Below, piece by piece: positions 1 to 5,410 of a DNA stretch of 44,786 bases. Origin of the DNA: an uncultured Thiotrichales bacterium (GTDB taxonomy: Bacteria; Pseudomonadota; Gammaproteobacteria; CAIRSR01). The number at the start of each line of letters is the position of its first letter. Positions within the stretch are counted from its first letter, which is position 1. The position numbers and the translations under genes are program-made. The stretch lies in contig CAIJYR010000046.1 of NCBI GenBank assembly GCA_903824965.1, positions 1 through 44,786 of the forward strand, read 5' to 3'. The notes beneath the pieces are model-generated. The model worked only from the letters and a program-made list of their open reading frames with translations. It had not been told where the DNA came from and searched no databases.

Positions 1-136
1 CAAATGGCTTTACGCCGTGCTCGGTTGCCTTACGTTTTGTCTCAGCCCGCGATACGGCTGCGGACATCGACAAAACGTACGGCCCTCACGGCTACGCGGG
101 GCTCGTCGCACTACGCTTCGCTCCATGTGCTCCTCG
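1..136. repeat. Hairpin-bearing repeat that truncates emrB
   Basis: The emrB reading frame loses all similarity to its family at about position 137, and the sequence from 1 to 136 is of another character. It holds an inverted repeat: positions 27-41 pair with 69-83 with one mismatch (GCCTTACGTTTTGTC against GACAAAACGTACGGC), separated by a 27-base loop. No recognisable protein is encoded. It looks like one end of an interspersed palindromic repeat or MITE-like insertion. Because it lies at the window edge, a chimeric join cannot be excluded. Confidence 0.45.
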
Positions 137-3703: not shown

Positions 3704-3719
3704 TGGCATGATTCATGCA
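3704..3719 (+). promoter_or_regulatory. Candidate sigma-54 (-24/-12) promoter
   Basis: TTGGCATGATTCATGC followed by A matches the RpoN consensus YTGGCACGN4TTGCW closely. The invariant GG and GC are exactly 12 bases apart (GG 3705-3706, GC 3717-3718). It would start transcription near 3730, about 40 bases before the first glycine-rich gene at 3768. No comparable match stands before the other four copies. This is a by-eye match; I did not scan for enhancer sites or for the background frequency. Confidence 0.5.
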
Positions 3720-3767: not shown

Positions 3768-4028
3768 ATGAGCATGAATGACAGCATTAGCGGTGGAACC
3801 CAGAGCGGCAAGAGTGGCGGTGACGCCTTAGGAGCCGGTGCAGGATTCAGCAGCGCAGGTGCCGGAAGCGGTGCAGGTGCGGGTGGTGGTGGCGGATTCT
3901 TGGGCGGTGGTGGATATGGTGGGGCCGATTCTTCCGCACATGCAGGTTCTATGGGTGCCAGCGTGGGTGCCATGGGTGGTAACGCAACCGATAATACGTC
4001 GATTGGTACCATCAACATCAGTTCATAA
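3768..4028 (+). CDS. Glycine-rich small protein, array copy 1
   Basis: 86 residues, about one third Gly, rich also in Ala and Ser, without Cys. Layout shared by all five copies: a polar N-terminus (DSISGGTQSGKSGGDA), a middle of Ala-Gly-Ser repeats (GAGAGFSSAGAGSGAGA) leading to GGGGGFLGGGGYGG, a variable acidic spot (ADSSAHAGS), then a strongly conserved polar end (GGNATDNTSIGTINI plus two residues). There is no Sec signal peptide and no membrane helix. I do not recognise the family. The start ATG at 3768 is chosen over the upstream ATG at 3675 because it lines up with the other copies and has TTTGGAGC in front. The first gene after the sigma-54-like site; function unknown. Confidence 0.8.
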   Translation: MSMNDSISGGTQSGKSGGDALGAGAGFSSAGAGSGAGAGGGGGFLGGGGYGGADSSAHAGSMGASVGAMGGNATDNTSIGTINISS

Positions 4029-4137
4029 AACCGTCAGCGCATCATCCAGGTGGGTGAATGCGCTTTCTTTGGTGTAGCGCCTTTTGGTTCGCAGTATCCA
4101 TCTCAAGCGTACTCTTAATATTTTTTGGAGCATAAAA

Positions 4138-4398
4138 ATGAGCACAGGTGACAGTATTTCTGGTGGCACGCAAAGCGGCAAGAGTGGCGGTGACGCCTTC
4201 GGAGCCGGTGTAGGATTCAGCAGCGCAGGTGCCGGAAGCGGTGCAGGTGCGGGTGGTGGTGGCGGATTCTTGGGTGGTGGTGGATATGGTGGTGCTCATT
4301 CTGACGCAGGTGCAGCTTCCATGGGTACCAGCGTGAGTGCCATGGGTGGTAACGCAACCGATAATACGTCGATTGGTACCATCAACATCGCCGGGTAA
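4138..4398 (+). CDS. Glycine-rich small protein, array copy 2
   Basis: 86 residues, the closest relative of copies 1 and 3. It begins MSTGDSISGGTQSGKSGG, keeps the GGGGGFLGGGGYGG centre, has HSDAGAASMGTSVSAMGG in place of the DSSAHAGS stretch of copy 1, and ends TINIAG. The start at 4138 has TTTTTTGGAG six to seven bases upstream. The third position and linker are almost unchanged from copy 3, which points to recent duplication, while the coding frame is intact in every copy, which points to selection on the product. No Cys, no signal peptide. Function unknown. Confidence 0.8.
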   Translation: MSTGDSISGGTQSGKSGGDAFGAGVGFSSAGAGSGAGAGGGGGFLGGGGYGGAHSDAGAASMGTSVSAMGGNATDNTSIGTINIAG

Positions 4399-4477
4399 GT
4401 GCACTTTCTTTGGTGTAGCGCCTTTTGGTTCGCAGTATCCATTTCAAGCATACTCTTAATTTCTTTGGAGAATGAAG

Positions 4478-4738
4478 ATGAGCACAAATGACAGCATTAG
4501 CGGTGGAACACAAACCGGCAAGAGTGGCGGTGACGCCTTCGGAGCGGGTGCAGGGTTCAGCAGCGCAGGTGCAGGAAGCGGTGCTGATGCAGGTGGTGGT
4601 GGTGGATTTTTGGGCGGTGGTGGATATGGTGGCGCTCATTCTAACGCAGGTGCCGCTTCCATGGGTACCAGCGTGGGTGCCATGGGCGGTAATGCAACCG
4701 ACAATACGTCGATTGGTACCATCAACATCGCAGGGTAA
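4478..4738 (+). CDS. Glycine-rich small protein, array copy 3
   Basis: 86 residues, N-terminus MSTNDSISGGTQTGKSGG, centre SGADAGGGGGFLGGGGYGG, end TINIAG. Two in-frame ATGs exist (4472 and 4478). GGAG at 4467-4470 is one base from the first and seven from the second, and the second lines up with the other copies, so 4478 is preferred. The differences from copy 2 are small and mostly conservative. No signal peptide, membrane segment or Cys. Function unknown. Confidence 0.8.
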   Translation: MSTNDSISGGTQTGKSGGDAFGAGAGFSSAGAGSGADAGGGGGFLGGGGYGGAHSNAGAASMGTSVGAMGGNATDNTSIGTINIAG

Positions 4739-4817
4739 GTGCGCGTTCTGTTATGTGGCGCCTTTTGGTTCGCAGTATCCATTTCAACCGTATTCTTAAT
4801 TTCTTTGGAGCATGAAG

Positions 4818-5081
4818 ATGAGCACAGGTGACATGATTAGCGGTGGAACACAAAGTGGCAAGAGTGGCGGTGACGCCTTCGGAGAGGGTGCAGGGTTCAG
4901 CAGCGCAGGTGCCGGAAGCGGTGCTGGTGCAGGCGGTGGTGGTGGTGCGCTGTGGGGCGGTGGTGGATTTGGTGGAGCCGATTCTTCCGCACATGCTGGT
5001 TCCGTGGGTGCCAGTGTGGGTGCCATGGGTGGTAATGCAACCGACAACACCTCGATTGGTACCATCAACATCGCTTCCTAA
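4818..5081 (+). CDS. Glycine-rich small protein, array copy 4
   Basis: 87 residues. It differs from copies 1-3 in the centre: GGGGGALWGGGGFGG replaces GGGGGFLGGGGYGG, so an aromatic residue stays at the same place but Phe-Leu becomes Ala-Leu-Trp. The distal part returns to the copy-1 type (ADSSAHAGSVGASVGAMGG) and ends TINIAS. The start is ATG 4818 with TTTGGAG upstream; an in-frame ATG at 4812 is too close to that site. The mosaic of copy-1 and copy-3 features suggests gene conversion within the array. Function unknown. Confidence 0.8.
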   Translation: MSTGDMISGGTQSGKSGGDAFGEGAGFSSAGAGSGAGAGGGGGALWGGGGFGGADSSAHAGSVGASVGAMGGNATDNTSIGTINIAS

Positions 5082-5146
5082 AAATCCTGTTGGGCGGCGA
5101 GTGTCCTAAAAACTTGGATCGTTGTATCTACACTGGAGAAGCAATC

Positions 5147-5410
5147 GTGAGCATGGGTGACAGTATTTCTGGTGGAACACAAAGCGGCAAGAGTGGCGGT
5201 GATGCGATGTCGGCAGGTGCAGGCATGAGCCACGCAGGTGCAGGAAGTGGCGCAGGCGCGGATGGTGGTGGTGGTGCATGGTGGGGCGGCGGTGGCGGCG
5301 GGATGGCCGATTCCTCTGCGGGTGCAGCCTCCATGGGCACCAGCGTTGGTTCCATGGGTGGTAATGCAACCGACAACACCTCCATCGGTACCATCAACAT
5401 CGGTTCCTAA
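5147..5410 (+). CDS. Glycine-rich small protein, array copy 5 (most divergent)
   Basis: 87 residues. It keeps the ends of the family (MGDSISGGTQSGKSGGDA and GGNATDNTSIGTINIGS), but the middle is changed: MSAGAGMSHAGAGSGAGADGGGGAWWGGGGGGMADSS has two adjacent Trp and more Met. The start is GTG 5147, with GGAG eight bases upstream and in line with the other copies. The frame is open from 5090 but that extension has no support. Its leader differs from the other linkers, so it may be expressed differently. The pattern of conserved ends and a variable aromatic centre is the key feature of the family. Confidence 0.78.
   Translation: MSMGDSISGGTQSGKSGGDAMSAGAGMSHAGAGSGAGADGGGGAWWGGGGGGMADSSAGAASMGTSVGSMGGNATDNTSIGTINIGS

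What the first reader, a model, noticed from the sequence alone, without database searches (positions are those of the whole stretch)
3768..5410. Five tandem glycine-rich proteins with fixed ends and a varied aromatic centre
All five frames are intact, share DSISGGTQSGKSGG at the start and GGNATDNTSIGTINI at the end, and differ mostly in the middle (FLGGGGYGG, ALWGGGGFGG, AWWGGGGGGM). Whole units with linkers were duplicated. There is no Sec signal, Cys or membrane helix. Gly-rich low-complexity proteins of this size can form fibres, amyloid-like layers, condensates or pore-forming microcins. I do not recognise the family. The divergent EmrAB/TolC-type exporter makes secretion conceivable, though that is inference and its emrB is broken here.
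Basis: partly seen in the sequence, partly recalled or inferred. Interest (0 to 1): 0.75.

Follow-up and report, generated by a model that had tools for sequence, protein, structure and literature searches.

The report
Secreted, enzyme-modified glycine-rich peptide array
Five tandem genes encode small glycine-rich peptides of an undescribed family found in scattered proteobacteria, always together with a peptide cross-linking enzyme (a graspetide-type ATP-grasp ligase) and a leader-cutting export pump, so they are most likely precursors of secreted, modified peptides.

Summary
In detail: five intact, Shine-Dalgarno-led, tandem glycine-rich genes with conserved ends, under purifying selection. 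I find no Pfam, NCBIfam, PHROGs or PDB family for them. Iterated profile searches found relatives in 10 other proteobacterial genomes (40 intact members called), usually in tandem arrays. All share K-x-G-G-[DE] near the N-terminus and D-[NQ]-[TP] near the C-terminus, 57-66 residues apart with one exception.

In several genomes the array lies next to an operon: an ATP-grasp ligase whose PDB homologues are graspetide synthetases (PsnB, MdnC, CdnC), a degenerate second ATP-grasp, a PpiC protein, an HlyD adaptor, a cNMP-binding/C39-peptidase/ABC exporter with intact triad, an FHA protein and three TolC-like proteins. Exporter and ligase occur in all 11 carriers (ligase weak in one) and at no comparable score in 59 non-carriers. 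The window's own genome has the machinery on two other contigs. A sigma-54-type promoter sits 49-64 bp upstream of the first gene.

Best reading: double-glycine-type precursors of a new, probably graspetide-like, type-I-secreted peptide system. Chemistry and biological role are inferred, not shown. The EmrAB/TolC genes beside the array are not its exporter.

The parts
3704..3719 (+). sigma-54-type (-24/-12) promoter TGGCATGATTCATGCA, 9 of 11 consensus positions, upstream of gene 1
   Evidence: sites with at least 9/11 precede the first gene of the array in G000, G410, G469, G500, G523 and G539; background about 0.04 per 250 bp
3768..4028 (+). glycine-rich precursor gene 1 (86 aa)
4138..4398 (+). 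glycine-rich precursor gene 2 (86 aa)
4478..4738 (+). glycine-rich precursor gene 3 (86 aa)
4818..5081 (+). glycine-rich precursor gene 4 (87 aa)
5147..5410 (+). glycine-rich precursor gene 5 (87 aa, GTG start)
4052..4125 (+). duplicated linker between copies (also at 4393-4466 and 4733-4806)
   Evidence: family D3, 84-91% identity

Best explanation
The five genes are precursors of ribosomally made, enzymatically modified, type-I-secreted peptides. Each has a short N-terminal leader ending in K-S-G-G, a low-complexity glycine-rich body that is free to vary, and a conserved C-terminal D-N-T...G motif. Proposed steps: (1) sigma-54-dependent transcription from 3704-3719 (site seen, activity inferred). 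(2) Recognition by the graspetide-synthetase-like ligase (ATP-grasp-B, on contig C216), probably with a degenerate ATP-grasp partner (ATP-grasp-A, contig C94) and perhaps a PpiC/TIGR04500-like protein, installing ester or amide bonds between side chains (inferred). The invariant or nearly invariant candidate residues are Lys15, Asp19, Asp75 and Thr77, besides variable Ser/Asp in the centre. (3) Cleavage after Gly-Gly and export by the C39/cNMP ABC transporter, HlyD adaptor and TolC-like channels (machinery shown, processing inferred). (4) The set of paralogues displays different aromatic/glycine centres outside the cell, most plausibly as bioactive peptides such as protease inhibitors or antagonists (weakest step).
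For: Relatives in 10 other genomes with the same anchors. Arrays abut the ATP-grasp or T1SS genes in G469, G500, G523, G539, G410, G496, G104 and G319. ATP-grasp-B hits TIGR04187/MvdD/MvdC 'ribosomal peptide maturase' models (below the curated cut-offs), and its best PDB hits are graspetide synthetases: PsnB E=1.9e-34, then MdnC, MdnB, 9bou, CdnC, AMdnB. Its ATP-grasp residues (KP, QE, RVH, LD-N) are conserved. In a 70-genome panel, ATP-grasp-B and the cNMP-C39-ABC exporter are in all 11 carriers, including the window genome, and not at comparable score in 59 non-carriers. The C39 Gln/Cys/His/Asp residues are intact in G469, G500 and G319; they are also present in the window genome's and G234's exporters. 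The PpiC gene's best NCBIfam model is TIGR04500, the family of the rosaritide partner MirC (PMC13097080). Gene order sigma54 activator-PpiC-HlyD-ABC-FHA-3 OEP-ATP-grasp-A is on one contig in the window genome.
Against: The leaders lack the hydrophobic -4/-7/-12 pattern of classical double-glycine leaders (K at -4, Q at -7), and I saw no microviridin-type 'PFFARFL' motif in them. The bodies are longer and poorer in acidic residues than most known graspetide cores (own knowledge). In the window genome the array, ligase and exporter are on three contigs, so linkage there is only by co-occurrence. G643 has only a weak ATP-grasp match (E=2e-12). No modification, cleavage or activity has been observed.
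Confidence: 0.62

Rival explanations
1. The peptides are secreted structural or matrix proteins (silk-like or adhesive). The same type-I machine exports them, and the ATP-grasp enzyme cross-links them between chains through their conserved ends, making a covalent polymer rather than small cyclic peptides.
For: Low-complexity GAGAGS-like centre, fixed ends, long bodies, many copies, no immunity gene noticed; the FHA protein and three outer-membrane proteins suggest a regulated, high-flux secretion machine.
Against: The best PDB relatives of the ligase are graspetide synthetases; an exporter with an intact C39 peptidase is typical of small exported peptides; copies are only about 85 aa.
Confidence: 0.15
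2. They are antibacterial microcins or class II bacteriocins, possibly multi-peptide; modification is minor.
For: Double glycine, a C39-ABC/HlyD/TolC exporter, multiple divergent paralogues, and more hydrophobic Gly/Leu/Val centres in G104 and G319.
Against: No recurrent immunity-like gene noticed beside arrays or dispersed copies; single copies are scattered among housekeeping genes; leaders do not match the class II pattern; two ATP-grasp-like enzymes point to heavier modification.
Confidence: 0.13
3. The ATP-grasp enzyme adds amino acids (RimK-like ligation) to the peptides rather than forming internal links.
For: RimK and MptN models also match weakly.
Against: Graspetide maturase models and structures score far better than RimK (E=1.9e-34 against about 1e-3 in the PDB).
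Confidence: 0.07
4. The array is a decaying or neutral repeat with no protein function.
For: A decayed sixth copy beside an IS3-type transposase exists, and the close relatives G001-G003 lack the family.
Against: Purifying selection, conserved ends across 10 bacterial families, Shine-Dalgarno-like sites on nearly every member and strict co-occurrence with the machinery.
Confidence: 0.03

Closest known systems
Graspetide systems, e.g. plesiocin (PsnB), microviridin (MdnB/MdnC), chryseoviridin (CdnC)
   Same: Homologous ATP-grasp synthetase with conserved ATP-grasp residues; ribosomal precursors; frequent C39-ABC and HlyD partners (PMC8939145)
   Different: Glycine-rich bodies with ends fixed on both sides, the two anchors 57-66 residues apart; a second, degenerate ATP-grasp protein; cNMP-fused exporter, FHA protein and three TolC-like proteins; no known core motif; cross-links not shown
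Rosaritide (graspetide group 21, MirA-D; PMC13097080)
   Same: Graspetide synthetase of the TIGR04187 type, a PpiC/TIGR04500-type partner and a peptidase-containing ABC transporter
   Different: Actinobacterial short core; here the PpiC match is below cut-off, the precursor is unrelated, and the export system is Gram-negative type I
Corallotide (graspetide group 15; PMC13097080)
   Same: Unusually large graspetide precursor
   Different: Repeated Lys-containing motifs and a 2OG oxygenase; the present family usually has one Lys, in the leader
NHLM/class II microcin exporters and double-glycine peptides
   Same: C39 peptidase-ABC exporter with HlyD adaptor, Gly-Gly before the predicted mature part
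   Different: Leader lacks the hydrophobic pattern; no immunity gene noticed; modification enzymes present

Membership tests
Graspetides | Dedicated ATP-grasp synthetase homologous to graspetide synthetases | tested here: met
   PsnB 1.9e-34, MdnC, CdnC; window genome's own enzyme, PsnB 4e-26
Graspetides | Side-chain ester/amide macrocycles in the product (loss of 18 Da each) | not testable with these tools
   needs co-expression and mass spectrometry
Graspetides | Conserved donor (Ser/Thr/Lys) and acceptor (Asp/Glu) pattern in the core | tested here: inconclusive
   Lys, Asp/Glu, Asp and Thr are (nearly) invariant at the two ends, but there is no repeated core motif as in described groups
Graspetides (microviridin type) | PFFARFL/Phh[x1-2]h motif in the leader | tested here: not met
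   the commonest leader is V-x-V-x-Q-S-G-K-S-G-G, without such a motif
Double-glycine peptides processed by C39 peptidase | Gly-Gly at -2/-1 in every precursor | tested here: met
   G and G at 100% (members were selected with K-x-G-G, so this is partly by construction; the unselected profile alignments agree)
Double-glycine peptides processed by C39 peptidase | Hydrophobic residues at -4, -7, -12 of the leader | tested here: not met
   -4 is always K, -7 is Q in 82%
Double-glycine peptides processed by C39 peptidase | Cognate exporter with intact C39 triad | tested here: met
Type I secretion | ABC transporter + HlyD adaptor + TolC-type channel encoded together | tested here: met
   (G469); window genome contig C94
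Class II bacteriocins / microcins | Adjacent immunity gene and antibacterial activity | tested here: inconclusive
   no recurrent small immunity-like gene noticed in the gene maps (not searched systematically); activity untested

The most novel reading that the evidence does not exclude
The two conserved ends are covalently stapled to each other (Lys or Asp around the Gly-Gly site with Asp/Thr of D-N-T) by the paired active/degenerate ATP-grasp enzymes. This would make giant single-ring peptides whose glycine-rich loop of about 60 residues is the variable, displayed part: a new graspetide architecture in which a duplicating array generates loop diversity.
Probability: 0.2. Interest if true: 0.8.

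Novelty: new variant of a known kind. Interest (0 to 1): 0.62.

Why it matters
It turns five anonymous low-complexity frames into likely precursors of a coherent, apparently undescribed peptide-modification and secretion system spread over at least 10 proteobacterial families. In Makarova et al. 2022 (PMC8939145) precursors of several ATP-grasp branches could not be identified; precursors like these, glycine-rich and able to lie away from their enzymes, would be easy to miss. The system pairs an active with a degenerate graspetide-type ligase and predicts precise residues to test. It also gives an exact motif for genome mining.

Tried and rejected
Pfam, NCBIfam, PHROGs and PDB searches of the glycine-rich proteins: no matches. 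tblastn in plasmids and phages: none. Pattern-based scans of genome contigs and viral contigs with the precursors: no confirmed relative; ATP-grasp-B in viral contigs: none, in plasmids one distant archaeal match. Close relatives G001-G003 have no array upstream of ileS (contigs end there, or transposase-like sequence lies there) and no family member elsewhere. The EmrAB/TolC exporter idea was rejected. AlphaFold on the window copies is uninformative (pLDDT 47); the wider alignment A3 was not folded because its loci are outside the tool's stated scope. Weak low-complexity hits on C38 and C7 were not followed. Literature searches combining glycine-rich, ATP-grasp and secretion terms found no paper on this system; supplements of PMC8939145 and PMC13097080 could not be opened, so an unnamed listing there is possible.

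Full report
Observation. The window is contig C46 of a 3.2-Mb draft genome; its isoleucyl-tRNA synthetase is closest to gammaproteobacterial ones. Between a divergent EmrA/OEP pair and ileS-lspA lie five intact frames of 86-87 codons, each preceded by GGAG. They are 83-90% identical to the first copy and sit in tandem repeats that include the linkers. Nei-Gojobori dN/dS is 0.14-0.55, with the C-terminal segment most constrained. A sixth copy on contig C142 is truncated and frameshifted, beside an IS3-type transposase.

Family. No curated family matches, and pattern scans and tblastn found nothing. A profile of the five copies over 369 members of the class found relatives in two other orders; after iteration, G104, G319 and G234 carry about 4 to 8 copies each. 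A sample of 398 phylum members added seven genomes outside the class, with arrays of 2-4. Forty intact members were extracted. Conserved positions, weighted by genome: K-[ST]-G-G-[DE]-[ATV] at the start and G-x-x-x-D-[NQ]-T-x-[IL]-G-x-[IV]-[NST]-[IV] at the end, 57-66 residues apart with one exception at 78; one member has P for T. Cys occurs in one of forty, and a Lys outside the leader in four. Residues in the centre vary, exactly the 'fixed ends, varied centre' of the finding.

Surroundings of the relatives. In G469 the array lies inside one gene run: PpiC, HlyD adaptor, a 1076-aa protein with cNMP-binding, C39-peptidase and ABC domains, an FHA protein, three TolC/OEP proteins, ATP-grasp-A, array, ATP-grasp-B. 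G500, G523 and G539 repeat this order in the part their contigs cover; G410, G496, G104 and G319 have an array or copy next to ATP-grasp-B, with OEP-like genes and ATP-grasp-A in G104 and G319. A further G319 copy lies beside the HlyD adaptor and the exporter. PP2C phosphatase genes lie next to ATP-grasp-B or the array in G104, G319 and G234.

Co-occurrence. In a 70-genome panel, profile A4 (ATP-grasp-B) finds all 11 carriers and, outside them, only two weak matches (9e-17, 2e-12). Profile A7 (cNMP-C39 part of the exporter) finds all 11 at 1e-67 or better and only two non-carriers at 2e-26 and 2e-22. G643's ATP-grasp match is weak (2e-12). G104 and G319 share a genus, so the 11 are not fully independent, and the non-carriers are mostly gammaproteobacteria. 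The window's own genome has ATP-grasp-B on C216 (48% identical to that of G469), and sigma54 activator, PpiC, HlyD, exporter, FHA, three OEPs and ATP-grasp-A in order on C94. C216 ends in IS3 orfA-like sequence just upstream of ATP-grasp-B, and C46 and C94 begin with the same 136-bp repeat, which cuts emrB. Insertion-sequence activity may have separated the parts, but the draft cannot prove distance.

Enzymes. The PDB matches of ATP-grasp-B at E up to 1e-3 are graspetide synthetases plus two weak RimK-type hits: PsnB 1.9e-34, MdnC, MdnB, a MvdD-like enzyme, CdnC, AMdnB; naming the codes 7drm, 5ig9 and 5ig8 as PsnB, MdnC and MdnB is my own knowledge. Its ATP-grasp residues are conserved. ATP-grasp-A is a distant homologue (PsnB 8.5e-12) whose anchor Lys is replaced by Arg or His and whose other ATP-grasp positions vary, so it is probably a non-catalytic partner. 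The C39 Cys, His and Asp are present in the five exporters compared. The PpiC protein's best NCBIfam model is TIGR04500, below cut-off, the family of MirC, which the rosaritide synthetase requires (PMC13097080).

Promoters. Sites matching TGGCAC-N5-TTGCW at 9 or more of 11 positions precede the first gene of the array in G000, G410, G469, G500, G523 and G539 (two are 11/11); expected about 0.04 per 250 bp. In the window this is 3704-3719. The G104 and G319 copies and most G234 copies lack such a site, so this is not universal. Sigma-54 activators are encoded beside the machinery in G000 and G234.

Mechanism. Shown: conserved precursors, conserved machinery, co-occurrence, conserved catalytic residues, purifying selection. 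Inferred: recognition by ATP-grasp-B, cross-linking, cleavage after Gly-Gly, export, biological role. The most conserved residues able to take part in ester or amide bonds are at the two ends, which raises the possibility of an end-stapled loop. The absence of a recurrent immunity gene speaks against a plain bacteriocin. Microviridins are protease inhibitors (PMC8939145), and one G104 copy follows a subtilisin-like gene, but that is a single case.

Comparison and novelty. It works like a graspetide system with type I secretion. Membership is not proven, because the defining bonds cannot be tested here, the microviridin leader motif is absent and the classical double-glycine leader pattern is not met. 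I rate it a new variant of a known kind.

Noticed in passing
window 1-136: Repeat identical to the first bases of contig C94 truncates emrB after about 175 codons; both contigs end in the same repeat.
   Followed up: partly
L006 1450-1635 (G000:C142): Decayed sixth copy of the glycine-rich gene next to IS3-type transposase fragments.
   Followed up: partly
L237 8494-10300; L121 7467-10640; L162 8609-11229: PP2C-type phosphatase genes adjacent to ATP-grasp-B or the array in three gammaproteobacterial genomes, with an FHA protein in the operon: possible phospho-regulation of secretion. The PP2C naming is by eye, not by a domain search.
   Followed up: no
L236 2113-6782 (G000:C94): Formylglycine-generating-enzyme-like, ShlB/FhaC two-partner transporter and Lcl_C-domain genes directly downstream of ATP-grasp-A in the window's genome.
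   Followed up: no
L123 16-7839; L242 9265-13302: Large NRPS-like genes beside a glycine-rich copy in G234 and near the export operon in the window's genome; not confirmed by a domain search.
   Followed up: no
L122 353-1995: A G104 precursor copy lies about 170 bp downstream of a subtilisin-like protease gene on the same strand.
   Followed up: no
L020 600-2400: In G003 the region upstream of ileS holds a transposase and intron-like sequence instead of the array.
   Followed up: no
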